Shown: one piece after another, positions 44,899 through 61,639 of the stretch
Layout: each line of letters starts with the position of its first letter
Numbering within the stretch: position 1 is the stretch's first letter
NCBI RefSeq assembly: GCF_040518285.1
Contig: NZ_CP155449.1
Span: 1,860,001 to 1,924,000 of the forward strand
From: Knoellia sp. S7-12
GTDB taxonomy: Bacteria; Actinomycetota; Actinomycetes; Actinomycetales; Dermatophilaceae
Direction: 5' to 3'
Length of the DNA: 64,000 nucleotides
Translations under genes and position numbers: made by a program
The notes under the pieces: generated by a model
Told to the model about the DNA's origin: nothing
Seen by the model: the letters and a program-made list of their open reading frames with translations, nothing else
Database searches by the model: none

Positions 44899-45118
44899 GG
44901 CCACGATGGTGACAGGCTGCGAGCGGAAGCCGTCTACCAAGGAGCAAGACCTCCTGGGTCCGCCCTCCGCAACTCGTCCCCACGCCTACTTCGGGCGGGT
45001 CCGCCATCGGACAACGGGTGACATCCCAACAGATCTGAAGCGCTCGGGGAGCCGCAGCAGTGCGAGTAGGAGGGATCAAGTACGGTGACGACAGTCGGGA
45101 TCTACTAGAGGGGTGTGC

Positions 45119-46207
45119 ATGAGTGGTTCCGCGTCCTTAGAGGAAATCCAAACTAAACCTGTGGCTGCTCCTTTGTTGGCTTCCCAAGTGCAAATGGGAC
45201 GCTTTCGATCGCCAGCCAAAATTGTAAGCATCTTCGACCCCGATGAGTGGGAAGAATTCACGAACGAATGGGTCGCGATACTCCCGGGCTACGCCAAGGT
45301 CGGAAGGATTTCCGGCGCCGGTGATCGCGGAGTCGACGTAGCCGGCTGGTTGTCCGAGAGTGGCTTTGCTGGAGACTGGGATGCGTACCAATGCAAGCAT
45401 TACAACCGAAGCCTCGAGCCAGCGGATGCATACAAAGAAATCTTCAAGTTGTTTCTGGCCGTTCTGGACGGCGTCTGGGCGCTCCCCCAGCGCTACTTCT
45501 TTGTCGCACCGAAGGGTTGCGGCCCCTCGTTGATGCAGTACCTCAACGGCGGGAGGGACCTCCGAGCAGCCTTTCTTGATCGGCTACAGGCGGACATAAA
45601 GACGCAAACCATCACGAGTAGCAGCGAAGACCGCGTCCGAGTAGAGACCTACGCGGCGTCCGTCGATTTCGCGATGTTCCGTGAAATATCCGTTGAGGAC
45701 GCGTTGAGCTCTCATAAGCAAACAGACCGGTACGTCTTGCGCTTTGGTGGCGGCATGCCACCTAAACCCACGCCGGAACCGGTCCCCGAGGCACCCACTA
45801 GCGAAGAGGCCCCATACCTAAGCGCGCTTTGGCCCGTCTACACGGAAAGATACGGGACGGAACTAGACTCGTTTGAGACATGCGTAAAGGACACTCGCGT
45901 ATCAAACCATCTGCTTCGACAACGCGAGGCATTTTATAGTGCCGAGACATTGAAGCGTCACGTCAGGGACCTGCTCCCCCCGGGGGCGTATGACGCCTAC
46001 CAAGAGGATGTGTACGTGGGGGTTGTTGATACTTGTGAGGCAACTTACCCCTCTGGGTACGACAGACTCGGGGCCACCATGGCTCAAGCTGCGCGGATCG
46101 ACATATCTGCAAACGCCCTCGTGCAGAGCAGCGAGATCAAAGACAAACAAGGCGCCTGCCACCAGCTCGCGGGTGACGAGGGCCTGAGGTGGGTAGCGAC
46201 ACCATGA
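45119..46207 (+). CDS. ABC-3C system effector: nuclease-like N-terminus plus CTD
   Basis: About 362 residues from ATG 45119 (AGAGGGG at 45107-45113). Residues about 40-130 look like a Mrr/restriction-endonuclease-type domain: Asp73 in DRGVDVAG and Gln91-Lys93 in DAYQCKHY form the D...QxK active site. Residues about 215-362 match the C-terminal domain of ABC three-component conflict systems: LRQREAFYSAETLKRHVRD, YQEDVYVGVVDTCEATYP and the end KDKQGACHQLAGDEGLRWV. The three genes overlap by 4 bases. Codon use is visibly more A/T-rich than in aroB. The effector is expected to cut nucleic acid when the ATPase senses invasion. Confidence 0.85.
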   Translation: MSGSASLEEIQTKPVAAPLLASQVQMGRFRSPAKIVSIFDPDEWEEFTNEWVAILPGYAKVGRISGAGDRGVDVAGWLSESGFAGDWDAYQCKHYNRSLEPADAYKEIFKLFLAVLDGVWALPQRYFFVAPKGCGPSLMQYLNGGRDLRAAFLDRLQADIKTQTITSSSEDRVRVETYAASVDFAMFREISVEDALSSHKQTDRYVLRFGGGMPPKPTPEPVPEAPTSEEAPYLSALWPVYTERYGTELDSFETCVKDTRVSNHLLRQREAFYSAETLKRHVRDLLPPGAYDAYQEDVYVGVVDTCEATYPSGYDRLGATMAQAARIDISANALVQSSEIKDKQGACHQLAGDEGLRWVATP

Positions 46208-46662
46208 TTCTTCTGAACGGGCCCTTCGAATCGAGCATCCACACCGCTTGCCTGCTTACCTCGGCTTGGCCGGAACCGCTGGACGTTGACAGGCTTGCAT
46301 TGATGGAGCACTTTGTGTTGTTTGGTGGGCCAGACGTAGAAGGTATCCAGCCCCCGATCGGCCAAGCGTCTACAGGCCTCTCCACGAGAAGGAGCAACGT
46401 GAGAAGCGGCCTGCAGGTGCTCTTGCGAGCTGGTCTGGCCGAGACGGAAGACGGGGGCGCAGGATTCAGGGCCACGGAGAGCGCTCCGGCCTTCGTATCA
46501 CTCCTGGAAAGTCCGGCGGCCCTGAAGATGAGGGCTACTTGTCAGCAAGCGGCGAATACGGTTGGGCGAATGAACGACGAAGACCTAGTTGCAGCGTTTG
46601 CGCAGCTTATGCTTGCCGAGCTTCGCCCAGCAGCCACTCATGACGACGGGACGCTCGAGTGA
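46204..46662 (+). CDS. ABC-3C system middle component
   Basis: 152 residues from ATG 46204, which overlaps the effector stop (ATGA); GTG 46189 would lengthen it by 5. Starts LLNGPFESSIHTACLL and shows a helix-turn-helix/winged-helix pattern (LALMEHFVLFG ... NVRSGLQVLLRAGLAE). In this system type a small wHTH middle component links ATPase and effector. Small size, position and overlaps support the call. Confidence 0.82.
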   Translation: MILLNGPFESSIHTACLLTSAWPEPLDVDRLALMEHFVLFGGPDVEGIQPPIGQASTGLSTRRSNVRSGLQVLLRAGLAETEDGGAGFRATESAPAFVSLLESPAALKMRATCQQAANTVGRMNDEDLVAAFAQLMLAELRPAATHDDGTLE

Positions 46663-48515
46663 TCTGGATCAAGTCAATCACTGCGACCGGGGCTGGAGTC
46701 GCGGCGGCATCTTTGGAGTTTGCGCAGGGCCTAACAGTGGTGCACGGTGCATCCGACACCGGAAAGTCATATTTGCTGGACCTAATTGACTTCGTATTTG
46801 GTTCACAGGCGGACATTCGAGTCCTGCCTGAGGCAAAGGAGTTCACGGCGGTCGAGATGGTTTGCCAGGTCTCCGAATCAGAGGGGCTCGAGACATTTCG
46901 GAGGCGCTTCGATAGCAAAACGATTGAGCGTGTCTCGGAAGATTCATCGAGCCGGTCACTCAAGACGAGACATTCCGTGTCTGCATCCGACAATATCTCG
47001 CGTTTGATGCTTGCCGCGATGGGCGCGGACGAGTGGGTAGTGATCAGGAACCAGAACGGCGACACCGACACCGTTAGTTTTCGCGATGTTCTCCACTTGG
47101 TCCTTGGAGATGAGGATGGCGTCCTTGGAAAGGCGCCACCTTTCTCATCTGGTAAGTTTGAAACGGGTACCAAGGAGCGGTCTCTCGTGCGCTGCATCCT
47201 TAACGGTGCGTCCGATCCGGCGCAGGTCAAGGGCGCGAGAATCAAAGAGAAGGCACTGAGTAAAGAGCAGCGAAAGCTTCTGGACCGCCTCATGGGGCGG
47301 CTCCTTGGGGAACTCGAGAACGAGCCTTCCCGCATAGAGGCTGAGGGCATGCGTCAGAAGCTGGCGGCGGCAGTAGAGGAGAGAAGCGCTCACCTGGAAC
47401 CCGCCCTGCAAGAGCTCGACTCGGCTCTCCAATCGCGCTCCGACGTTTCCGCAAGCGGTGCGGCAGCGAGTAGCCGAGCAGCGGAGATCTCTGAGTCCCT
47501 CGCGCGCTTCGAGGTGCTTAACGCTCAGTATCAAAGTGACATGGAGCGGCTCGATGTAGTGGAGGAAGGTGCCCTGATTCTCAATCTCCATGAGACGTCG
47601 ACGTGTGCGCTGTGCGGCCAATCCCTAGACGTGGAGACCGAACCGACTGCGCACGCTGAACACGCAATTCACGCAGATCAAAATGACGGGTCTATAGCGG
47701 ATGCTGTTCGCCGGGAGCGCTTCAGAATCGAGATGCTCACCGACGGTCTACGCTCGACGATGCGCGAACTCGAGGAGGAACTCTCGGCGGCCCAGGGAGC
47801 GGCTCAGGATGCCCAACTTGCCATCCTTGCTGCTACTTCACGTCTTGCCGCCGCTGAAGGGGTGGTAGCCCCCGTCAGAACTGAGATCGCCGAATTGAGC
47901 CAGAAGCTAGCGTCCTTGGACACGACGCTCGCAAAATATGAGCAGCTGGATTCCATCGACGAGTTTCGATCCGAGATCCAGAATATCGAGGGTCAGCAAC
48001 TGCCTAATCTCCAGATGTCCCCGGTGGCCCTATCCGAATACTCCAAGGAGGTTGCCCGGGTGCTAGCGGCGTGGAGCGTCCCGGGGGCAAGTACCGCCCA
48101 CATCGTTCCCGAGACTTTGGAAGCCTCATTGGAGGGCAAGCGACGGTCCGAGCGCGGAAAGGGCGTACGCGCGATCCTTTACGCCGCGCAGGTTGTTGCA
48201 TTCGCGCAACTTTGCATCCGAAAGGGCCTTCCACACCCGGGGTTCGTGGTCCTCGACTCGCCCCTGGTCACATATAAGTCTCCCAAGGTGGAAAAGGGTG
48301 ACACGGAACTCATCGACGATGAAGTTGGTTACGCGTTCTATCGATATTTGGATCAGGAGTTTCTCGGCCAGGCCATCGTTTTCGAGAATGTGGATCCAGG
48401 CCAATCCGTCACCCGAGGGACGACCTACGAGTTCTCGGGCAACGATTCGGGGCGGTGGGGCTTCTATAAGGTTGCCGCTTCGGGGGATGAAAGCCTCGGT
48501 TCTCCGCCGAAATAG
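46659..48515 (+). CDS. ABC-3C system ABC ATPase (DUF3732-like)
   Basis: 618 residues, GTG start overlapping the middle component. SMC/Rad50-like: Walker A GASDTGKS at residues 30-37, a coiled coil on either side of a zinc-hook-like CALC at 316-319, a signature-like RRSERGKGVRAI near 495, and Walker B GFVVLDSPLV with Asp533. The N-terminus FAQGLTVVHGASDTGKS resembles DUF3732 ATPases of ABC-3C systems. It probably senses foreign DNA or replication intermediates and licenses the effector. The CxxC hook suggests dimerisation or a zinc joint. Confidence 0.88.
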   Translation: MIWIKSITATGAGVAAASLEFAQGLTVVHGASDTGKSYLLDLIDFVFGSQADIRVLPEAKEFTAVEMVCQVSESEGLETFRRRFDSKTIERVSEDSSSRSLKTRHSVSASDNISRLMLAAMGADEWVVIRNQNGDTDTVSFRDVLHLVLGDEDGVLGKAPPFSSGKFETGTKERSLVRCILNGASDPAQVKGARIKEKALSKEQRKLLDRLMGRLLGELENEPSRIEAEGMRQKLAAAVEERSAHLEPALQELDSALQSRSDVSASGAAASSRAAEISESLARFEVLNAQYQSDMERLDVVEEGALILNLHETSTCALCGQSLDVETEPTAHAEHAIHADQNDGSIADAVRRERFRIEMLTDGLRSTMRELEEELSAAQGAAQDAQLAILAATSRLAAAEGVVAPVRTEIAELSQKLASLDTTLAKYEQLDSIDEFRSEIQNIEGQQLPNLQMSPVALSEYSKEVARVLAAWSVPGASTAHIVPETLEASLEGKRRSERGKGVRAILYAAQVVAFAQLCIRKGLPHPGFVVLDSPLVTYKSPKVEKGDTELIDDEVGYAFYRYLDQEFLGQAIVFENVDPGQSVTRGTTYEFSGNDSGRWGFYKVAASGDESLGSPPK

Positions 48516-48628: not shown

Positions 48629-50431
48629 TCAGAGGTCGTCTCGAAGGCCGAGGATCTTGGCGAGAGTGCTGCGGACATCGAACCCTGAATTCAGTTGTAT
48701 TTGCGTGATGCCACCAGCAGAGACCGCACCATGGAACAGGTCCATTACGTCGGCTTCGAACAAAGATCGCGGCCTCGCCAGGCTGAGGGAATGCTGGCGG
48801 AATCGCCGATACTCGCCTGGCGTGCGGAACAAGACGGAGAACCACTCGTCGCCGACCTTCGATATAGAGACATCCCACGACGCCCTGAACGCCGCCATTA
48901 CTGGCCCGGGGTCCAGCAAAGGATGGGGCTGAGTGAAGAGCCTGGGATCATCCGGGTTCTCGTCGAGCGTTCTTGAGCGTTGCCAGTTGATCAGAATGCG
49001 ATCCGTGACATTATTGACGTCTGCGATTCTCGGGGCGTTCATCGCAAGGTACGTAGCCAGCCAAAGTATCGGGACGTCCAGCAAGTTCTTGCGCACTTCG
49101 GAAACTATCTGACGAGCGTCTGATAGAAGTTCTACGCAGTGGTAATCGGCACACGACGCGAATGTCTTCAGGATGCGCCCACTCAGATCGTCGGCCGGCG
49201 GCAGCCAATGTTCCGAAACCAAGGCTTGCGCCTGGACAAACAACTCCCGGTGCTTAGGTTCGCCGTCCAGGTCAAGCGGCGAATACGGTTGGCCGCGCGT
49301 ATAGGTGTTGCTCTCGTAGTCGAACTTGCGCTGGCACAGGTCGATCAGTCGCGATTGCACGCACGGATTCACGAGGAAGGCATCCGCGTCGTACCCCAAA
49401 CGCATGTGCCAGTTCCCGTTGTACTGCGTAAGTTCGTCAGGTGTCTTCGTTCTGATGAGGCGCGCCGCGTACCAGATGTCTTCGCTTGCCTGCCGGAAGA
49501 GCGCGTCGAACCGGGCAGCGCTACCAGGTGGGTCGTCATGGTCCAGCCGGAGTGCCTCCTGGATGTCGTCGATATCGTCCGCCTTCTTCGCCTCCAAGAA
49601 CCGGATGTCAGTCAGGATGTCTGCAATCGCGGGCCGGTCGCCTGGGCTCTGCGCCAGCATGCGTGTCACTACGGGGTCGAGGTAGGACATAAGCGGATGG
49701 GACGCCTCGATGGAACGATAACGAGGGCCGACGGGTAGCTCTCGAGTGAAGCACTCGTGGACGATCATGCCCAGTGCGTAGACATCGGCTTCCGGTCCCA
49801 CGTCGCGGGCGTCTTGCCCCTTCCGTTGTTCTGGAGATCGGTAGTCCCTGTTGCCGACAAGTTCACCCGCGGACGTTAGGGCGGAGTCCGCGAAGTGAGC
49901 TATCCCGAAGTCTGCTAGGGCCGCGAACGCGCCATCGATGAGCACGTTCTCCGGCTTGACGTCGCGGTGCACGACCCCACGCTCATGCGCGAATTGCAGC
50001 GCCGCGCCAATCTGTTGGATGTACGACAGGAGCGTGCTGGCGTCCGTTTCCCCTCGGTCGATGACGCCGCGAAGAGTGTCCGGGTAGAAGGGCATGATGT
50101 AAAAGGGTCGATCCTCGTACTCACCCCTCGCCACGACAGGGACGATGTGGTCGTGACGACAACTCGCTTGAAACAACGCTTCGCGGTTGAACCGCTCGAC
50201 CCTTTTCTCATCGGCGCCGACTCTGAGCAGCTTGACGGCCCAGAGTTTTGCCTGGGCCTCAGAAAGCCACACGTCGCCTGCCCCGCCACCGCCAACGGTC
50301 GTCTGCAGTTCGTAGTCAATGCCTTTGCATGTCAGCCTATGCCCCTTCTTGAGAGACAACGCCCACCTTCCCTCCTGATCGGACTGGCCTCGAGCGAACG
50401 ACGGGGCCAGGCTGACTCTTGTTATGCGCAA
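48629..50431 (-). CDS. Serine/threonine protein kinase with unknown C-terminal half
   Basis: Up to 600 residues (TTG 50431; TTG near 50359 in front of SLKKGH is a plausible later start). Residues 40-300 are a full Hanks-type kinase: Gly loop GGGGAGDVWL, Lys67 in WAVKLL, Glu84, HRDVKPENV (Asp157), DFG (Asp174), SPEQRKG and DVYALG. Residues about 310-600 are helical with Trp/Tyr patches, have no membrane helix and no PASTA or other familiar sensor. Convergent with the ABC ATPase gene 113 bases away. Could be a defence kinase that phosphorylates host targets, or a regulator. Function unknown. Confidence 0.85.
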   Translation of the reverse strand: MRITRVSLAPSFARGQSDQEGRWALSLKKGHRLTCKGIDYELQTTVGGGGAGDVWLSEAQAKLWAVKLLRVGADEKRVERFNREALFQASCRHDHIVPVVARGEYEDRPFYIMPFYPDTLRGVIDRGETDASTLLSYIQQIGAALQFAHERGVVHRDVKPENVLIDGAFAALADFGIAHFADSALTSAGELVGNRDYRSPEQRKGQDARDVGPEADVYALGMIVHECFTRELPVGPRYRSIEASHPLMSYLDPVVTRMLAQSPGDRPAIADILTDIRFLEAKKADDIDDIQEALRLDHDDPPGSAARFDALFRQASEDIWYAARLIRTKTPDELTQYNGNWHMRLGYDADAFLVNPCVQSRLIDLCQRKFDYESNTYTRGQPYSPLDLDGEPKHRELFVQAQALVSEHWLPPADDLSGRILKTFASCADYHCVELLSDARQIVSEVRKNLLDVPILWLATYLAMNAPRIADVNNVTDRILINWQRSRTLDENPDDPRLFTQPHPLLDPGPVMAAFRASWDVSISKVGDEWFSVLFRTPGEYRRFRQHSLSLARPRSLFEADVMDLFHGAVSAGGITQIQLNSGFDVRSTLAKILGLRDDL

Positions 50432-50691: not shown

Positions 50692-50843
50692 GTCACTTCG
50701 CCGCCTGCGGACTCGCTGCTTCGGCGAACGGGGTCTACCGTCGTTGCGGTTCGGGTGCCTGGGCCGCGTTGGCGGCGGGCGTGACCTTGGCCTCTCGCGG
50801 TCGCCGCATGAGGTGACGCCATGTCCGCTCCAACGACTCTGCT
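50692..50843 (+). repeat. Integrase upstream repeat, copy 1
   Basis: 152 bases with about 91% identity (13 differences, one a gap, counted by hand) to 63850-64000. The repeat covers about 129 bases of upstream sequence and the first codons of two integrase genes. It contains CGAAC and GTTCG in inverted order, about 20 bases apart, which could be recombinase-binding half sites. Confidence 0.9.
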
Positions 50844-51735
50844 TCCGTTCCAGCCGTCATCAATGTCGACCGCCCAACTGGCAGCGGTCTCGTTCTTGGC
50901 CCGCTACTCCGGGCGCACCCACACCCTTTACGCGTTCCAGCTGCGGCAGTGGTTCGCCTGGTGTGAAGCGAGCGCCCTGGACCCGTTGGTGGGAATCCAG
51001 CGGGCCCACGTCGAGTTGTACATCCGCAGCCTCGGGGATCGGGGCCTGATGGACTCCTCAGTCGTGACGATGATGCACGGCGTCCGGGGCTTCTTCCGGT
51101 TCGCGCACATCGACGGTCTCATCCCCGCCGACCCGGCCGTCTACGCGAGGCTGCCCAAGGTCCACCGCGACGAATCCCGCACCCAGGGTCTGGACCGACT
51201 GGAGCTGATCCGTTTCCTCCAAGTCGCCCAGACCATCACCGTTCACCACGGCGCCCTGGCATATCTGCTCGGCATCAACGCCCTGCGCGCTTCGGAGGCT
51301 GCCGCGGTGCGGATCGAGGACTACGCCGACACCCTGCGTGGACACCGGGTGCTGCACTTGGTGGGCAAGGGCAACAAGCCCGCCACGATGCCGATTACCG
51401 TTCCTGTGCTGCGGGTCTTGGAGGCATGCCGGGGCGAGCGCACCAGTGGGCCACTGATCCTCCGGCCGCTCACTGGCAAACCGATCGACCGGCGCGACGC
51501 CTACCGGATGGTCGCCCGGATCGCGAAGGCCGCCAGCATCCCGCGTCACATCAGCCCGCACTCGCTGCGGCACGCCGCGATCACCAACGCCCTCGACGCG
51601 GGCGTTCCCCTGCGGGATGCCCAGATCCTGGCCCGGCACGCCGACCCCAGAACCACCGAGCACTACGACAGAGCACGCGGCAACCTCGACCGACACGGCG
51701 TCCATTTCCTGACCGCCTACGTCGCCGGCGTCTGA
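50821..51735 (+). CDS. Tyrosine recombinase (phage-integrase family)
   Basis: 304 residues. The SAM-like N-terminal domain (residues 15-100) is followed by the catalytic domain with Arg156 (ALRASEA), Lys183, His247-Arg250 (HSLRHAA), His273 (ARHADPRTTEHY) and Tyr282. All catalytic residues are present, so it should be active. Size and layout resemble XerC/XerD-type integrases of small mobile elements. It heads the right-hand part of the island, and a second copy begins at 63978 in the same orientation. Confidence 0.95.
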   Translation: MSAPTTLLPFQPSSMSTAQLAAVSFLARYSGRTHTLYAFQLRQWFAWCEASALDPLVGIQRAHVELYIRSLGDRGLMDSSVVTMMHGVRGFFRFAHIDGLIPADPAVYARLPKVHRDESRTQGLDRLELIRFLQVAQTITVHHGALAYLLGINALRASEAAAVRIEDYADTLRGHRVLHLVGKGNKPATMPITVPVLRVLEACRGERTSGPLILRPLTGKPIDRRDAYRMVARIAKAASIPRHISPHSLRHAAITNALDAGVPLRDAQILARHADPRTTEHYDRARGNLDRHGVHFLTAYVAGV

Positions 51736-51782: not shown

Positions 51783-51950
51783 CAGCCCTAGACTCAGATG
51801 CTCTGCCGAGCACGTTGGCTGAAGCGCAGCCAGACGCGGGTTCGAACTGCCTCGAGAGGGCTCTCGTCCAAAGTCCGGTGACCTGAAGGGCTCCCGGGTA
51901 GGCTCGAAGCCACTGCGAATAACAGCACTCTTGCATGCGAGGGGTCACTC

Positions 51951-53072
51951 TTGATTCAGGCGCTTTCAGGCGCGCGCAATCACCTGCGCGGCATCGGGGA
52001 TCGATGGAACCCGAGTGGCTTCTTGTCGAGCGTTGCCTCCGCCGCGCGAGGACGAAGCCAAGACGGCGCCTCGGACGGGGGACTGCTCAGTGTTCGAGGT
52101 TCTTTTCCAACGATCATCGCCGAGGGCCTGGGAATGGTCCCCGCCCCAGCCACGGGTCTCGCGCTTTGGCTGGGTTCCGTTCCGCACCAGTCGCCGGGGC
52201 TATCGGAGTGGTACTTCACCCCTGACACTTCGGAACGAATAGCCTCGATGATGTCGGGCCGATCGCTGCATCTTGGCAGCCCATCGGTGGCGGCGTTGTG
52301 CTCCTCTCGGGCCACACTGGTCGACGCCAGCCCGTGGGTGTCTGAACGCTTTGACCTCCGGGCAGCTCGCTTCATCCAGGCCGATGTCGCGGAGATTCCG
52401 GACTCCCAGCTCTTCGACGCTGCCTGTATCGACCCACCTTGGTACGGAAGGAACATCGAGAATTGGCTGCGGCTGGCGAGCAGCTTAACTAGACCTGGGG
52501 GCGTCATAACACTGGCACTGTTGGGAGAGTTGACGAGGCCGGATGCGGCTAAGGATCGGGTGCGAATCCTTAAGTTGGCGCGTTCTATCGGTGAAACCGA
52601 AATCTACAGAGATGAGGTTACCTATGACATACCCCTTTTCGAGTGGCGCGCTCTAGAAGCAAGTGGCCTTGTTTTGGAGGACGTCTGGCGCAGGGCCGAC
52701 TTAGTGGTGGTGCGAAACGAGCGCCCCGCCGCCCGACCGAAGATGACGGTGGAGCGCCGACCTTGGAGAGAGATACGGATAGGTGATCATACTGCCTCCG
52801 TGAGGAGCGAGGTCTTCGATTCCGAGTTCGCGGGTGAGAGTGCCAGCGCCGCATACGATGCACTTGGCACTCTGGATAGCGTAAGCCAAAGGCATCCGAG
52901 TATTGAAAGAGCACATATTTGGAGCTGCGAGAATAGGCTCATCGTAGTTCATGATGCTGGGTCGGTCATTGGTGCTCTGGAGTGGCTGAGCGAGTCGGCC
53001 GGGACAGCCCGTACCGGGGATGCTCCAGAAATCGCCATGCGGGTATTTCAAGACCTTTTTGGGGGAGACTAG
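51951..53072 (+). CDS. DPPWY methyltransferase-like protein
   Basis: 373 residues from TTG 51951; the 215 bases upstream hold no gene. The core resembles a Rossmann methyltransferase: SLHLGSPSVAALC in place of motif I, TLVDASPWVSERF as motif II, RFIQADVAEIPD with an acidic motif III, and IDPPWYGRNIE (residues 160-170) as motif IV, the DPPW/Y signature of N6-adenine or amino-transfer enzymes. Motif I lacks the usual DxGxG pattern. The order I-IV with no target-recognition domain resembles branched polyamine synthase (DUF43) layouts more than DNA methylases. The N-terminal 85 residues and C-terminal 110 are unrecognised. It abuts the phosphoesterase gene with zero gap. Confidence 0.72.
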   Translation: MIQALSGARNHLRGIGDRWNPSGFLSSVASAARGRSQDGASDGGLLSVRGSFPTIIAEGLGMVPAPATGLALWLGSVPHQSPGLSEWYFTPDTSERIASMMSGRSLHLGSPSVAALCSSRATLVDASPWVSERFDLRAARFIQADVAEIPDSQLFDAACIDPPWYGRNIENWLRLASSLTRPGGVITLALLGELTRPDAAKDRVRILKLARSIGETEIYRDEVTYDIPLFEWRALEASGLVLEDVWRRADLVVVRNERPAARPKMTVERRPWREIRIGDHTASVRSEVFDSEFAGESASAAYDALGTLDSVSQRHPSIERAHIWSCENRLIVVHDAGSVIGALEWLSESAGTARTGDAPEIAMRVFQDLFGGD

Positions 53073-54491
53073 TTGTTGATTCTACGATTCAGTGACTTTG
53101 AGACTGACACCATTGCTGAGCACGCAGACATTATTGCAGACGCAGGAGCGGTTTGGTGGGCATGGTGGAAGAAGGTGCACGAAGCTGACAGAAGCGATCT
53201 ACTGGCTGGCCTGGTGCGGCAGTTGAAGGACGGATCGGTACGGCTAGGGCTCACTGACCGCGTAGATGAGCGGTACTTCGTTGCCGAGTGTGACAACTGC
53301 GTCTACACGGCAGATGGCGAGCTACCGTGTCCCGAGCCAGATTCGGCACCGGTGTATTACCGCGACATGGCCTTTCCTGCTTGGTTTCGATTCACCACTA
53401 TTTCGCAAGTGAGTCGGGGGGATTGGGAACAGGAGTTCGGACGGGTCCCCACTGGCGACGCCACGATTTACGAGCTCCAACGGGCTCGGCCCCAGATCGA
53501 GTCGTACCTCATGGAGGCGGACATACCTGAGGGGTGCGAAGGCGTGCTCCATATATCCGACCTTCATTTCGGAACGGACCATGGGTACTCGCGCCGGCCG
53601 CAGGATTCAACGTACTTTCGGCGCAATCTTCTTGAGAAGGTGACCGAGTCCCTCCCATGTCGCCCAGCCTGCGTCGTGGTCTCCGGGGACCTGACGACCA
53701 AGGGTCAGGGCGACGGGCTTCGCAGCGCCCGGCTGTTCCTTGAAGAACTGGCCGAGCGGCTCGGGCTCCCTAAGCATTGCATCGTGATTGCGCCAGGAAA
53801 TCACGACATCCTCATCGATGACCCAGAGTTGACACGCGACTTCAGCAATGAGTTGCCCTTCCGGGAATTGCTCGCACTGTTCTATGGTGAAAAAGTCGAC
53901 ATTGAGCGGGTTCACGATCTTAGGGATCCGCATGGCCGGCACTACATCATTGGGGTCCTGAACTCGTCTCGTCCTCGTCACCGCACAAATATGGATTATG
54001 GATATGTGGGCCGAGATCGAAGTGCCCCAGTGTTTCGCTCCATGAGCGCATTGGCGCAACGCCCGCGCCAAGCCGCTTGGGTGGCCGTAACTCTGCACCA
54101 TCACGTACTGCCGGGCCAGCACGTGGAAATTCCAGAGGAGGAAAGGCCAGTGAGCCTGTGCTTGGACGCAGGGGAATTGCTAACGCTTGCGCAGGAATCT
54201 GGGGTCTCCACCATCTTGCACGGTCATCAGCACCTTCCCTTCGCTGCTTCAGTCACACGGCTTGCCGAATACACTTCGGCGGGCGTCGTTCGGCCGAAAC
54301 GATCAGCTATCCACGTCTTGGCGTCAGGCTCGTCGGGAGTTGAAGCAGGTCGCATTCCAGGGGAGATCGGCCTAAACACCTTTTCGATATATCGCCCCTT
54401 CAACGCAAAGGGTCGGGTGAAAGTCGCGTGTTACGCGTATCGCGACGTCCGTGATGTTGAGCGTGTGTGGGAGCTCACTCTTAGGAATTGA
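53073..54491 (+). CDS. Calcineurin-like phosphoesterase with novel N-terminal domain
   Basis: 472 residues from TTG 53073, immediately after the TAG of the previous gene. Residues 155-450 have the metallophosphoesterase set: Asp163-x-His165 (SDLHFG), Asp206 (SGDLTT), GNHD at 242-245, His in TLHHHVLPG and HGHQH. Residues 1-150 are unlike any domain I know: FSDFETDTIAEHADI, then a Trp run VWWAWWKK, acidic and Cys pairs (ECDNCVY), then VYYRDMAFPAWFRFTTI. This pattern may be a beta-rich ligand- or nucleic-acid-binding module. The substrate could be a nucleotide, nucleic acid or protein phosphate. Confidence 0.85.
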   Translation: MLILRFSDFETDTIAEHADIIADAGAVWWAWWKKVHEADRSDLLAGLVRQLKDGSVRLGLTDRVDERYFVAECDNCVYTADGELPCPEPDSAPVYYRDMAFPAWFRFTTISQVSRGDWEQEFGRVPTGDATIYELQRARPQIESYLMEADIPEGCEGVLHISDLHFGTDHGYSRRPQDSTYFRRNLLEKVTESLPCRPACVVVSGDLTTKGQGDGLRSARLFLEELAERLGLPKHCIVIAPGNHDILIDDPELTRDFSNELPFRELLALFYGEKVDIERVHDLRDPHGRHYIIGVLNSSRPRHRTNMDYGYVGRDRSAPVFRSMSALAQRPRQAAWVAVTLHHHVLPGQHVEIPEEERPVSLCLDAGELLTLAQESGVSTILHGHQHLPFAASVTRLAEYTSAGVVRPKRSAIHVLASGSSGVEAGRIPGEIGLNTFSIYRPFNAKGRVKVACYAYRDVRDVERVWELTLRN

Positions 54492-55888: not shown

Positions 55889-56224
55889 ATGGCAAAGAAC
55901 ACGACGGTGACGATCACCGATGACCTAGACGGTTCGGCCAACGCGAAGGAGGTTTCGTTCAGCCTCGATGGCAGGACCTGGCTGATCGACCTCAGCGCCA
56001 AGAACCGCGCTGCCATGGAGAAGGCGCTCAAGCCCTACATTGCCAAAGCAATTGAGCAAGGCAGGCAGGGCCGTCGCGGCAAGGCAGCCCGCACGCCATC
56101 TCGGGCAAAGTCACGCACCGACCTGGGCGCCGTCCGCGAATGGGCGAAGACCAACGGTCGCCACGTCAGCGAGCGGGGCCGGATCAGCGCCGACGTCCTC
56201 AACGCATACGACGCAGCTCAGTAA
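55889..56224 (+). CDS. lsr2: Lsr2-family nucleoid-associated protein
   Basis: 111 residues. N-terminal beta-strand dimerisation half (VTITDDLDGSANAKEVSFSL), basic linker, and a C-terminal helix-loop-helix with the AT-hook-like Arg-Gly-Arg (residues 96-98). This is the actinobacterial H-NS analogue that silences A/T-rich foreign DNA. It starts at ATG 55889 with no strong Shine-Dalgarno. Inside the island it may be an accessory copy regulating the cargo; whether a core copy exists elsewhere is not visible here. Confidence 0.88.
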   Translation: MAKNTTVTITDDLDGSANAKEVSFSLDGRTWLIDLSAKNRAAMEKALKPYIAKAIEQGRQGRRGKAARTPSRAKSRTDLGAVREWAKTNGRHVSERGRISADVLNAYDAAQ

Positions 56225-57694: not shown

Positions 57695-60600
57695 TCAGGC
57701 CACGCGATCGCTGTGCAGCCAGCGATCTTCGCCCCTGGGGGGAGCGATGCCCAAGGCGTGATAGACGCGTTCGGCCTCGCCGCTTGCGAGGTGCGGCGTC
57801 ACGGCCTCACCCGTGTGGTGGTAGTTGTCGCGTCCGCCTGCGAGAAAGCGTTCGACGACTGCCGGATTCCTTGAGTCGAGCCCCGTCAAGTTGCGCATGG
57901 CAACGCATGAAGGGTGATCAGTGCGCAGGGCCGCAACGAAGACGTGGTCGATGTCGTACACGCACTGTCCAGCCTCTCTTGCGAGATCACGGGCATCCAC
58001 GATGATCGCGAGAAGCTCGTCGGAGATCACGCGCGGCCTGTGATCGAGACGCGCAAGCATGTTCCGGTACCCCATCAGGTGCAGAGGCGCAGGCCACTTG
58101 GTGATGAAGCGTCTGCGGACCGCGGCTCTGACGCGCCGGGGGAGTCCGTCAGTGTGTCCATAGGTAGCGAAGCAGGTCATCAGGTCCGCGACGTCAACGG
58201 TGGGACTGCCGGGGAGCGCGTGCTCGGCTGCGTCGTCGATTCCTCGTAGGAGGTTCTCTTCCGCCCAAGCGGGGAAAGACACTCTGGCTGTTGGATCGGC
58301 TGCGGGAAGCGCGCCAAACAGTTGGAGTCCGGCCCATGCCATCGGGGCGGCACTGCTATCCCCAGCACGCCAGCGGTGGAGCATGCTCAGTTGCAAACTC
58401 GAGATGAGGACGTGAAGGGGGACTCCGTCTGCGACGCCAGCAACCATGTATCGATCCACTTCGGGTATGTCGAGGATGGGGAATGCGGTAACTAGGGCTC
58501 GACGTGCGCCAGCTTGGATGAGGGCCGCGCCTAGGACCGTCCACTCTCCAAGGAGTGCACTGGTCATGTCGGAGCTCTCACACGCCAGGGCAATGACTTG
58601 GCGTGGCATCGGGTAATCGGTGTCAGCGCGAGCGATGTCGGAGGCGAAAAGGACGTCGCTCGAGTCGATGTTGTCCAATGGTGCTAGTGCGAAGCCGCGC
58701 CGGTTCGCGATCTTGACGGTATGGCAGGCGAGGAAGAGCGTGCTGTCGTAGGGCGCTGCGCGCAGTGCGGCGGTGAGGCTAGCGCGGGGATCTTCCGTCT
58801 GCGAGTCGATACGGGCGGCCTGTAGGGGCAGATGAGCCGAGGCCTCCTCGGCGGCATATAGGTCGCCACCGGGATCGACTAGGCATGTGGCGATGGGGCA
58901 AGTGTATTCGTCGTCTGCGTCTGGTGTGGGGAGGACGGAGGCGGGTGGGACGATCACGGTGTCGAAGGATTCGACCAAGCGATGCCCACCAATGCTCGTC
59001 CAGGCCCACGGAATGTGGGCTAGTTCGGGTGCCAGCGCCATGCAGATCGTCGTCCGAATGCGGTTGTGCGACCGAACGTCGGTGATGGTCCTGGGTAGAA
59101 GCTGGCCCACTCTGTCTGCAAGCGTTGACTCGACGTCCGAGGGAGGTGCCAACAGGGCGCTGCGGCTCATGCGCTCGAAGAAGTCATGATCGCTTTCGCC
59201 CTGGCCTTGAAGGCTGAGATGTGGCCCAAATTCCTGTAGCACCGCGTTTACCGCGGCCATGGAGATGCGCCCGCCCTGCACGACGCCTTGTTGATCTTCG
59301 CTTGTGAGGGCCCAGTAGAGATGTTTCCTCGAGACGTGTGTCGACCACCACCACGCACCCTTGCCCCCGGCGGCGTGAATGATGTCCTCGAGGTCGACCA
59401 TGGTGGGGCGGCTGCCAAAGTAGTAGCGCTGACTTCCCAGTATTGATTGGCCCGCGATCCTTAAGGCCGTCGGTCGCAAGTCCTCGCGGCTGGTCCCGAG
59501 CTGGAGTCGTGCTGCTTCGATGATCTCAAGAAGAAGGGGCCAGTCTTGGAAGCCATGCACCTCCTCTAGGAGGGTGTCCAAAGTGGGGAGGAAGGCGTCC
59601 CACCAGCAAGCACGATCGTCGGGGTCGGCTAGTTCGTGGCGCACGACATTTAGTGACGCAAACGCTTGCGCTCTCAACTGGATGCTCTCGGAAGTGACGT
59701 GTTGGCGGTTGTTTCGGTGCAGGTCGGCGCCCCTGTTGCAGTAGGCCGCGACGACGAAGGGAGATGACAGCTCGGTCAGGACCAGTAGCGCGTCATCGTC
59801 TAACAGGAACATGGCCGGGGACTCTTGGTCTCCGGCGAATGCCAGTCTGGTGACGGCGGCCCCGCGAGCCCCTAACTCATGAGGCGCGGGCTGTTGGAGC
59901 TGCCGGGCCTCCAGGGTTGAGCGATCGAGGAACTCACGGTCTTGGGTGAGAAACAGGTCGGCCAGCGCGAATGCCCGGGAAGCCGCGGTCCCCGACGTGA
60001 ACTGGTCGATCCCGAGAAGCGTCTCGCCCAGCGCCAGGTAGCAATCGGCCGCCCACATGACGGTATCTCGCGTGATTCTGCTTGGAATCAGCCCAGCGAT
60101 CTCTTCCGCAATCACCATGGCGGAACCGTGCGGGATCGACGCGCGAAGCCAGGCGAGCTGGGTGGCCCGGCCAAGTGAGGTCGTGAGGTCTGGCGCCTCC
60201 CGAAGTTCAGGTGGTCGGGTGCCGAGTAGTGCGTGCACCTGCGCTTCAACCAGGTCCCTCACGCCGCAGTGTTGATCTGCTAGGTGGCGGGCAAGGCGCC
60301 GGGCGTGGCCGGGGTGACCGTCGAGCGCGTGAGCGACTGCCAGGGCCGCCATCACGTCAGGGTGAGCTGCTTCTTCGCCTTCCAGGTTGGTGATGACCTG
60401 GCGCGTTCGTCCTTTGGCCAGATCGACCCATGCGCTCTTGACACGCGCGTCGGCGGGTTTGGTCAACGGAACATACCCAAGTGTGTGGTTGGCGCGGAGG
60501 AGCATCATGGCAAGGCTGGCCGTGATCGGCGCGAGGAGGACCCACCAGTGAACGCGCGTCGCCAACATCGTTAGTGCGACTACGCCGAGAACCCGTAGCC

Positions 60601-61639
60601 AGGCGTCGGTCCATTGCCATCGCCCAGAAGAGTTCTCGATGACGATGGCGGCGAGCAGTCCTAGTCCGAATGCCGCGGTTGGATTTGCAGACGGTGCGAG
60701 AAGGGCGGTGGCAGTGCCGAGGACGACTCCCGCACCGATCGTGACGAAGGAGTCGTATGTTCGGCTCCGAACCACGAAAGCCGCGGCGGGCCTGATGAAG
60801 GTCGTGAGTCGCCCCGTGAACCGGCTGTCGATGATTGACGTCCCAGTGGCGACGGCGTATTCACCGACGTGAGCACTTAGCCTGACGACGAACCACGCGA
60901 TCGTGAACCACGCAGCCTCTTGTGGTCGCCTCAGCAGGCACAAGACCAGAGCGCAGCACAACAGCCACGGCACCCTGGAAGGCCACACCAGTGGACGTGT
61001 CTCGCTCACGAGCAGCGGTTCGACGCGATGCTGGGGCTGCGTGGAGAACAGGGCAGCGATCGCGAAGCCCACCAACCACCACCCTCGACCCGCAACAGCC
61101 CCGCCGACGATCGCAACAGCAACAGTCACCCTCACGCCAACCGAAACCACCTGACAGGCTCGTTCAACACGCCAAGCCGGCATCGAGGTGAAACCGATCG
61201 GCTCTGAATCGGGATGTTTATCGGTGGTCTCCTCGAGCAGTTGCGTCGCGACCTGCGAACGCAACGACGACAGGTCGTCGGGGGACATGGTGGGCAAGCC
61301 AAAAGAGTCACCCAGCGAGCCAAGAGCCTCGTTCGTGCATGCTCTGCTCGTAATACCCAGGGCTATGGCCACGTGCCCGACCTCAACGCTGCTGCTGCCA
61401 ATCGCTTTCGCGACCAACACTGCTGCCCATCTAACCCGCTCAAGCTGAGCTACCGTGAGGAGGCTGTGAGGCAGGATTAGTTGCGCGAGATCGTGCTCGT
61501 CGATGGAAAGCCGAAAGCGAAGCCACGACTCGGGTTCCCACCGCTCTAAAGCGCGAACGAGGCGTTCCCGTGGGGGCGTTCGAGAGGCGTGACCGTCAAC
61601 TGAGGTGAACGGGCGCGCGGCGCGTTCGGTCCACTCCAT
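57695..61639 (-). CDS. Large membrane CHAT-type protease-like protein
   Basis: 1314 residues, ATG 61639 with GAGGAG at 61647-61652. Layout: (1) residues about 70-125, Clp_N-like helices (AAVLVAKAIGSSSVEVGHVA); (2) about 165-400, six to eight membrane spans; (3) about 400-850, TPR-like helices (GRTRQVITNLEGEEAAHPD); (4) about 890-1130, CHAT caspase-like domain with His973 in LFLACHTVK and Cys1020 in VIALACESSD, a complete dyad; (5) about 1204-1266, a Clp_N-like unit (LLAIIVDARDLAREAGQCV ... IDHVFVAAL). It may be a membrane-tethered conflict protease activated through TPR or Clp_N contacts. The EACC1-like gene lies tail to tail, 100 bases off. Confidence 0.8.
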   Translation of the reverse strand: MEWTERAARPFTSVDGHASRTPPRERLVRALERWEPESWLRFRLSIDEHDLAQLILPHSLLTVAQLERVRWAAVLVAKAIGSSSVEVGHVAIALGITSRACTNEALGSLGDSFGLPTMSPDDLSSLRSQVATQLLEETTDKHPDSEPIGFTSMPAWRVERACQVVSVGVRVTVAVAIVGGAVAGRGWWLVGFAIAALFSTQPQHRVEPLLVSETRPLVWPSRVPWLLCCALVLCLLRRPQEAAWFTIAWFVVRLSAHVGEYAVATGTSIIDSRFTGRLTTFIRPAAAFVVRSRTYDSFVTIGAGVVLGTATALLAPSANPTAAFGLGLLAAIVIENSSGRWQWTDAWLRVLGVVALTMLATRVHWWVLLAPITASLAMMLLRANHTLGYVPLTKPADARVKSAWVDLAKGRTRQVITNLEGEEAAHPDVMAALAVAHALDGHPGHARRLARHLADQHCGVRDLVEAQVHALLGTRPPELREAPDLTTSLGRATQLAWLRASIPHGSAMVIAEEIAGLIPSRITRDTVMWAADCYLALGETLLGIDQFTSGTAASRAFALADLFLTQDREFLDRSTLEARQLQQPAPHELGARGAAVTRLAFAGDQESPAMFLLDDDALLVLTELSSPFVVAAYCNRGADLHRNNRQHVTSESIQLRAQAFASLNVVRHELADPDDRACWWDAFLPTLDTLLEEVHGFQDWPLLLEIIEAARLQLGTSREDLRPTALRIAGQSILGSQRYYFGSRPTMVDLEDIIHAAGGKGAWWWSTHVSRKHLYWALTSEDQQGVVQGGRISMAAVNAVLQEFGPHLSLQGQGESDHDFFERMSRSALLAPPSDVESTLADRVGQLLPRTITDVRSHNRIRTTICMALAPELAHIPWAWTSIGGHRLVESFDTVIVPPASVLPTPDADDEYTCPIATCLVDPGGDLYAAEEASAHLPLQAARIDSQTEDPRASLTAALRAAPYDSTLFLACHTVKIANRRGFALAPLDNIDSSDVLFASDIARADTDYPMPRQVIALACESSDMTSALLGEWTVLGAALIQAGARRALVTAFPILDIPEVDRYMVAGVADGVPLHVLISSLQLSMLHRWRAGDSSAAPMAWAGLQLFGALPAADPTARVSFPAWAEENLLRGIDDAAEHALPGSPTVDVADLMTCFATYGHTDGLPRRVRAAVRRRFITKWPAPLHLMGYRNMLARLDHRPRVISDELLAIIVDARDLAREAGQCVYDIDHVFVAALRTDHPSCVAMRNLTGLDSRNPAVVERFLAGGRDNYHHTGEAVTPHLASGEAERVYHALGIAPPRGEDRWLHSDRVA

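What the first reader, a model, noticed from the sequence alone, without database searches (positions are those of the whole stretch)
51951..54491. Unrecognised two-gene unit: DPPWY methyltransferase-like protein abutting a calcineurin-type phosphoesterase
The genes are joined with zero intergenic bases, so they are co-transcribed. The first has DPPWY (161-165) but a degenerate motif I; the second has a complete metal set plus a novel 150-residue N-terminus. I cannot assign the pair to a named defence system. A modify-and-cleave or synthesise-and-degrade logic is possible.
Basis: partly seen in the sequence, partly recalled or inferred. Interest (0 to 1): 0.85.

Follow-up and report, generated by a model that had tools for sequence, protein, structure and literature searches.

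The report
Methyltransferase-like partner of an anti-phage phosphoesterase
Two touching genes in a bacterial defence island encode a probable base-modifying enzyme and a probable nucleic-acid-cleaving enzyme related to half of a recently tested anti-phage system (DS-9), but with a different partner, so this looks like an unreported variant of that system.

Summary
The two genes are real, start at TTG with good ribosome sites, abut with zero bases and are co-inherited. The second protein's 'novel' N-terminus is a known Pfam domain (PF24405, Pua-like). The whole protein matches NCBIfam DS9_1 'anti-phage phosphoesterase' (319 bits; cut-off 420), half of DS-9, an E. coli system that blocks phage and needs its metallophosphatase residues. 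DS-9 pairs it with a HAD phosphatase; here the partner is a Rossmann SAM-type enzyme whose motif I is family-typical, not degenerate, from a family between PF10237 (probable N6-adenine methyltransferases) and branched polyamine synthases. The adjacent pair recurs in five bacterial phyla, on plasmids and on phage-labelled contigs. In searches started from B, intact Pua-like phosphoesterases whose neighbour was seen had either this partner or the HAD; most homologues' neighbours were not seen. Relatives of A also occur without B, beside radical-SAM, ASCH, kinase or dGTPase genes; 5 of 16 fetched A-B loci have PurZ-like or QueC-like genes nearby: a purine theme. Most likely a DS-9-like defence module in which A marks self and B cleaves the unmarked; polarity, substrate and anti-phage activity are not shown. 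New variant of a known kind.

The parts
51939..51944 (+). GAGGGG, probable ribosome binding site of gene A
   Evidence: Sequence; 6 nt before the TTG.
51951..53072 (+). Gene A, 373 aa: N-terminal helical domain, class I Rossmann SAM-type transferase domain, C-terminal part of about 100 residues
52272..52292 (+). A motif I, LGSPSVA (residues 108-114), family-typical
   Evidence: Alignments A1, A2, A4.
52431..52445 (+). A motif IV, DPPWY (residues 161-165)
   Evidence: D161, P163, W164, Y165 invariant and P162 at 90% or more in 36 sequences.
53061..53067 (+). GGGGGAG, probable ribosome binding site of gene B, inside the end of gene A
   Evidence: Sequence.
53073..54491 (+). Gene B, 472 aa: Pua-like domain plus calcineurin-type phosphoesterase
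   Evidence: PF24405 and PF00149; NCBIfam DS9_1_antiphage 319 bits, cut-off 420; AlphaFold2 pLDDT 91.9.
53076..53417 (+). B residues 2-115, PF24405 Pua-like domain, with a conserved WWxWWKK..E patch (W29, W31, W32, K33, K34, E37)
   Evidence: E 4.1e-23, 82.5 bits, cut-off 27; conservation. Assigned by sequence only; its fold was not tested apart.
53544..54236 (+). B residues 158-388, PF00149 phosphoesterase with a complete metal-ligand set

Best explanation
An accessory, horizontally moved two-gene defence module of the DS-9 kind. B is the effector: a two-metal phosphodiesterase/nuclease with an N-terminal Pua-like domain that probably reads the state of a nucleic acid or nucleotide. A, encoded just ahead of B and probably translated in step with it, is a SAM-type Rossmann enzyme that probably alters an exocyclic amino group, most likely of adenine or a related purine, in that same substrate and so keeps B off host material; B cleaves what lacks the mark. 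Shown: the two ORFs and their junction, domain content and conserved catalytic residues, recurrence and co-inheritance of the pair, relation of B to DS-9A.
For: B matches DS9_1_antiphage over nearly its whole length (319 bits), and an A-partnered relative (A. fabrum plasmid, L051) passes NCBI's cut-off (430 against 420). In DS-9, mutation of the metallophosphatase residues of DS-9A led to loss of defence (PMC13092281, passages). A-B adjacency: 8 of 14 genome loci found with A (one of the other 6 ends at a contig end); B-first, 4 of 4 plasmid places covering 80% or more of B, 1 of 1 phage-labelled record, the one Pua-like hit of 4 viral-contig hits, and 2 of 2 phylum genomes with a full-length B among 396, the window's own included (only the best 4-5 candidates a genome were scored). 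Distances of A and B correlate over 14 physically linked pairs, r 0.96, 0 of 10,000 permutations as high. Asymmetry: A without B exists, while an intact Pua-like phosphoesterase with neither A nor HAD was not met among those seen. One stand-alone Pua-like protein lies beside a D12 adenine methyltransferase and an EcoRV-type endonuclease (L075). The A family matches PF10237 at E 0.01 or less in 8 of 29 members. Island: ABC-3C genes, kinase, CHAT protein; G+C 0.60 (A) and 0.58 (B) against 0.687 (sd 0.016) upstream.
Against: DS-9 defends with a HAD phosphatase and no A, so a mark made by A cannot be a general need of this effector family. Relatives of A sit with nucleotide enzymes (kinase, PurZ-like, QueC-like, dGTPase), which fits a small-molecule substrate as well as DNA. 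The fold of A is nearest to an aminopropyltransferase, not a DNA methyltransferase, and the window's A has no Pfam hit itself. The EcoRV case is one locus. Neighbours of most of the 351 B homologues were not seen, so the asymmetry rests on few loci. A-B rows do not form one clade in the A tree (3 changes). No phage or biochemical data exist for this pair.
Confidence: 0.42

Rival explanations
1. Nucleotide-level system: A modifies a free (deoxy)purine nucleotide or signal and B hydrolyses a nucleotide or cyclic/oligonucleotide; defence comes from depleting or switching a nucleotide pool. The authors of DS-8 and DS-9 suggest novel signalling molecules for those systems.
For: B's fold neighbours include the cyclic-nucleotide phosphodiesterase Rv0805 (activity recalled) and SMPDL3A. 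DS-9's second gene is a HAD phosphatase. A-family loci carry nucleotide kinases, a kinase-PurA/PurZ-like protein, QueC-like and dGTPase genes.
Against: The Pua-like domain and its EcoRV/D12 neighbour point to nucleic acid; in 11 of 16 fetched A-B loci, the window included, none of these nucleotide genes was found (searched only with the queries, within the fetched flanks).
Confidence: 0.3
2. Toxin-antitoxin pair by protein contact: A is a repurposed Rossmann protein that holds B inactive; phage infection frees B.
For: A comes first with zero spacer or short overlaps in the six junctions measured. In Afipia A and the Pua-like part of B lie in one open frame (L014).
Against: The catalytic motif of A is invariant, which a mere binder would not need; A persists without B in haloarchaea.
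Confidence: 0.12
3. Modification-dependent (type IV-like) attack: B cleaves foreign nucleic acid bearing unusual purines, and A removes or alters such marks on the host or is a decoy.
For: PUA-superfamily domains are modification sensors in known endonucleases (start of the abstract of PMC7897488 in a search listing).
Against: A co-inherited modifier is not expected for a type IV enzyme.
Confidence: 0.07
4. Housekeeping or metabolic pair (for example RNA or nucleotide repair) with no defence role.
For: Haloarchaeal A genes examined stand alone; their neighbours look like ordinary metabolic genes by eye.
Against: Sporadic distribution, low G+C, plasmid and phage-labelled copies, relation to DS-9A.
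Confidence: 0.06

Closest known systems
DS-9 (DefensePredictor; NCBIfam NF053862 DS9_1_antiphage for DS-9A)
   Same: First protein with PF24405 plus PF00149 (shown for the enterobacterial plasmid DS-9A, L057; 571.6 bits); two-gene unit; defence neighbourhood (Hachiman gene close by in L057).
   Different: DS-9's second gene is a HAD phosphatase, downstream of DS-9A; here the partner is a SAM-type enzyme upstream of B, and no DS-9B homologue was found in the fetched A-B loci. The window's B is below the NCBI cut-off.
PF10237 N6-adenineMlase (probable N6-adenine methyltransferases)
   Same: Sequence match at E 0.01 or less for 8 of 29 A homologues, over the motif I to IV region in those looked at; shared non-canonical motif I (comparison with human EEF1AKMT1 is recalled).
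   Different: The window's A itself has no hit; extra N- and C-terminal parts.
BpsA, branched-chain polyamine synthase (PF01861)
   Different: A has LGSPSVA at motif I and no GDDD, the motif that is indispensable in BpsA (PMC12979288, passages; that both lie at motif I is recalled).
Type II restriction-modification systems
   Same: Possible modify-and-cleave logic; one stand-alone Pua-like protein adjoins an EcoRV-type system.
   Different: No restriction endonuclease match; the cleaving enzyme is a calcineurin-type phosphoesterase.
SbcD/Mre11 and Rv0805/GpdQ phosphoesterases
   Same: Catalytic fold and metal ligands.
   Different: Pua-like N-terminus and SAM-type partner. An SbcC-like partner was not sought; the LmuB-like ATPase upstream is separated by other genes.

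Membership tests
DS-9 | First protein: Pua-like plus metallophosphatase | tested here: met
   PF24405 and PF00149 in B.
DS-9 | DS-9A equivalog by NCBI's curated cut-off (420 bits) | tested here: not met
   319 bits; five A-partnered relatives score 289 to 430 bits, one above the cut-off.
DS-9 | Second gene: HAD phosphatase | tested here: not met
   Partner is gene A; phmmer with L057 DS-9B found no homologue in ORFs of window 44-64 kb or of the other loci held then (E 1e-4).
DS-9 | Anti-phage activity that needs the metallophosphatase residues | not testable with these tools
   Needs a phage assay; reported for DS-9 only.
PF10237 N6-adenine methyltransferase-like | Pfam match above the gathering score by the protein itself | tested here: not met
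   No hit for the window's A; relatives P0029, P0031 and L015 pass (25.3, 39 and 43.9 bits, cut-off 23.2) and L053's does not (20.1).
PF10237 N6-adenine methyltransferase-like | SAM-dependent amino-methyltransferase activity | not testable with these tools
   DPPWY conserved; activity unmeasured.
BpsA | GDDD motif | tested here: not met
   No GDDD in A; motif from PMC12979288 passages.
BpsA | Overall fold | tested here: met
PADLOC-listed systems | A or B matched by a full-length system model | tested here: not met
   A: none; B: only partial phosphoesterase matches to PDC-S60, 'Effector' and PDC-S10.
Type II restriction-modification | Sequence-specific DNA methylation that protects from the cognate nuclease | not testable with these tools
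   Needs methylation sequencing.

The most novel reading that the evidence does not exclude
The A family is the hub of an unrecognised network of purine-hypermodification systems: A plus B; A plus B near a PurZ-like enzyme with a nucleotide-kinase domain plus DUF7002; A plus B behind QueC-like and nitroreductase-like genes; A inside a DUF6932 / XRE-IrrE / DUF4186 / radical-SAM / ASCH / kinase cassette; and A fused to a dGTPase-like HD domain. In the window the A-B pair would be its minimal form: a self-mark made on purines by a BpsA/PF10237-type enzyme (methyl or bulkier, such as aminopropyl) and a Pua-reader phosphoesterase that destroys unmarked nucleic acid.
Probability: 0.17. Interest if true: 0.88.

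Novelty: new variant of a known kind. Interest (0 to 1): 0.56.

Why it matters
DS-9's substrate is unknown. Finding the same effector architecture stably paired with a SAM-type, probably base-modifying enzyme instead of a HAD phosphatase gives a handle on what the effector recognises, and links it to a set of cassettes with purine-nucleotide enzymes. It also shows a pair partly hidden by late start codons in public gene calls.

Tried and rejected
Named function for A: none by Pfam, PADLOC, NCBIfam or PHROGs for the window's copy; no solved structure by sequence profile at E up to 1. Viral structures gave phage DNA methylases and other methyltransferases, several without a name, and nothing that names a function. 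Viral contigs with the A alignment: none of 27 pattern stretches was a relative, although the B-first hit L060 does hold an A, so that scan misses some; the genome scan is likewise incomplete (its two peptide patterns do not fit the window's own A).

P0026/P0093 share a contig length (3194 bases) but were dropped as a pair: P0026 is acidic and nests with haloarchaeal A, P0093 is not acidic. With it the A-B distance correlation is 0.92 over 26 pairs, without it 0.94 over 25. Pairing by equal contig length (13 of 37 A hits against the 120 listed of 351 B hits, the window and this dropped pair included) is circumstantial. The permutation test does not allow for shared ancestry of rows. Trees: in the A tree (52 rows) the A-B label, which there still included P0026, needs 3 changes and the type II label, HD fusion included, 1; some long rows are unsure. 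In the B tree (49 rows) the DS-9A row joins the L058 row on long branches.

Literature: ten full-text searches; in the listings and passages that I saw there was no report of the A-B pair, and 'PF24405' occurred in none of the 8 papers listed. Subscription papers and preprints outside PMC were not searchable. PMC7641849, PMC10853773, PMC12839542, PMC8195603 and PMC9503650 were searched by term only.

Considered and set aside: A as decayed methyltransferase (catalytic motif invariant); B as a plain SbcD (Pua-like domain); Lamassu/ABC-3C membership (those genes, 45113-48515, are separated from A-B by a kinase and an integrase gene).

Full report
What is there. Two ORFs on the + strand, A (51951-53072, 373 aa) and B (53073-54491, 472 aa), abut with no spacer; A's stop codon is followed at once by B's TTG. 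Both TTG starts have purine-rich ribosome sites at 5-6 nt, and homologues align from the first residues. The public gene calls for this contig start later (244 and 326 aa), so B's first domain is lost in them.

DS-9. In PMC13092281 (passages read) DS-9 is a two-gene system validated in E. coli, found by DefensePredictor, with a metallophosphatase (DS-9A) and a predicted HAD phosphatase (DS-9B); mutating DS-9A's predicted catalytic residues led to loss of defence, and the substrates are unknown. A Klebsiella plasmid copy (L057) has DS-9A at 571.6 bits, with full-length PF24405 and PF00149, followed by a HAD-IA gene and close to a Hachiman gene. Of 19 plasmid records found with this DS-9A, 12 hold it over its full length with a HAD-IA gene listed under the match (one of the 12 in two aligned pieces), 2 hold 48% of it, 4 are the A-partnered alphaproteobacterial ones, and 1 is a partial phosphoesterase match that was not looked into.

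Pairing. Of 14 genome loci found with A, 8 have B next to it: Sinomonas, a Rhodoglobus MAG, Streptomyces, a Dormibacterota MAG, an Acidobacteriaceae MAG, a Bacillota MAG, Afipia (B broken over several frames; A and the Pua-like part share one open frame) and a Sphingomonas-like strain. Of the other 6, 3 are haloarchaea, 1 ends at the contig end (L008), 1 is a type II cassette (Flavobacterium, L013) and 1 is an HD fusion (Thalassotalea, L015). Starting from B: all 4 plasmid places covering 80% or more of it have A beside it, and the other 12 records, at up to 77% coverage, are the enterobacterial DS-9 ones. The one phage-labelled record has A. Of 4 viral-contig hits only L060 has PF24405, and it has A; L061-L063 are other phosphoesterases. 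In 396 genomes of the phylum, 2 carry A and 2 carry a full-length B: the same two, adjacent, one of them the window's own genome; 61 further genomes have only partial phosphoesterase matches, and only the best 4-5 candidates a genome were scored. In the class sample PF24405 passes its cut-off in 2 of 394, again those two; a third has a marginal match. In 398 Pseudomonadota genomes it is in 2, one being the Afipia genome that was the centre and the other the stand-alone case below. Junctions are 0, 0, 0, -1, -19 and -19 nt in six loci measured, the window included. A and B distances correlate (r 0.96, 14 linked pairs, 0 of 10,000 permutations); relatedness of rows inflates this. Neighbours of most of the 351 B homologues were not seen.

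A without B. Eleven plasmid records hold A: 4 with B; 5 fetched ones (Tolypothrix, Roseovarius, Rhizobium sp. WYJ-E13, Nostoc, Aulosira) hold a cassette of DUF6932, XRE/IrrE-like, DUF4186, radical-SAM, A, ASCH and P-loop kinase genes and no B in the fetched stretch; 2 were not fetched. In Nostoc a dGTPase gene lies next, on the other strand; in Thalassotalea A is fused to an HD domain related to it. In three haloarchaeal loci A has no B in the fetched stretch, and their three genomes (G451, G455, G456) have no PF24405 match at all. A is in 4 of 81 genomes of that haloarchaeal family, the A-bearing centre included. PF24405 was found in 7 of 13 genomes chosen for A, exactly those with A-B (Sinomonas was not held).

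Purine theme. Of 16 fetched A-B loci, 4 (L004, L050, L051, L052) carry nearby a PurA/PurZ-like protein and DUF7002, 1 (L016) carries QueC-like and nitroreductase-like genes, and in 11 none of these was found with the queries used. In L004 the PurA-like protein's N-terminus is a P-loop kinase domain over cut-off, related to the kinase of the type II cassettes. The L050 protein scores 259 bits to an adenylosuccinate synthetase model (cut-off 368) and 206 to PurZ (cut-off 300), so it is neither by NCBI's cut-offs. The window's genome has one PurA-like gene, far from the window and taken to be the housekeeping one, and no DUF7002 hit (no control rang, so absence is not shown). One stand-alone PF24405 protein in a Pseudomonadota genome lies about 40 bases from the open frame of a D12 adenine methyltransferase, which adjoins an EcoRV-type endonuclease gene (L075).

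Setting. The window carries an ABC-3C CTD6 protein (45113-46207) and LmuB-like ATPase (46659-48515), a serine/threonine kinase (48629-50431), a tyrosine recombinase (50821-51735) and a CHAT protein (57695-61639) around the pair. A and B have G+C 0.60 and 0.58 against 0.687 (sd 0.016) in the flank at 5-44 kb, and third-position G+C 0.63-0.64 against 0.83-0.89 in three core genes. Of 58 genomes searched among relatives only the window's own has A, and 0 of 8 others of its genus.

How it works (inferred). B resembles an anti-phage effector that needs its metal site. A is upstream, abutting and catalytically conserved; A can exist alone, but an intact Pua-like phosphoesterase with neither A nor HAD was not met among those seen. 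This asymmetry is what one expects if A protects from B. The Pua-like domain and its single restriction-modification neighbour suggest that B senses a nucleic-acid mark; the nucleotide enzymes around A's relatives suggest that the mark is on a purine, perhaps made at nucleotide level. The main weakness is DS-9 itself, which works without A, so A may instead process B's product or substrate pool.

Verdict. A partner-swapped relative of DS-9: new variant of a known kind, with a less certain but more interesting link to a purine-modification network.

Noticed in passing
window 45113-48515: ABC-3C pair: CTD6 protein (PF20282, E 8e-35) and LmuB-like ATPase (PADLOC LmuB, 395 bits).
   Followed up: partly
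window 48629-50431 (-): Serine/threonine kinase with a long C-terminus, best PADLOC match PD-T4-6 (164 bits).
   Followed up: no
window 57695-61639 (-): 1314-aa protein with a CHAT domain.
   Followed up: no
window 55889-56224 (+): Lsr2 nucleoid protein (PF11774, PF23359) inside the low-G+C island.
   Followed up: no
window 51951-54491: Public gene calls for this contig start both genes 129 and 146 residues late and so drop B's Pua-like domain.
   Followed up: yes
L053 6175-12115 and L054, L055, L056, L059: Conserved plasmid cassette DUF6932, XRE/IrrE, DUF4186, radical-SAM, A family, ASCH, P-loop kinase; no report as a system seen in the listings.
   Followed up: partly
L004 11251-12966 (-), L050 7601-9202, L051 13220-14821, L052 8090-9736 (-): PurA/PurZ-like protein, with an N-terminal P-loop kinase domain over cut-off in L004, beside DUF7002, near A-B pairs.
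   Followed up: partly
L075 6551-9105: Stand-alone PF24405 protein beside a D12 adenine methyltransferase and an EcoRV-type endonuclease.
   Followed up: partly
L015 7755-10382: A family protein fused to a dGTPase-like HD domain in Thalassotalea; the gene upstream looks like an ATPase by eye, untested.
   Followed up: no
L051 5921-9879: OLD-like ATPase and UvrD helicase genes (Gabija-like, name recalled) directly upstream of an A-B pair on an Agrobacterium plasmid.
   Followed up: no
L063 5962-8979: Phosphoesterase fused to nSTAND_NTPase4 (PF24406) on a viral contig, reminiscent of DS-8.
   Followed up: no
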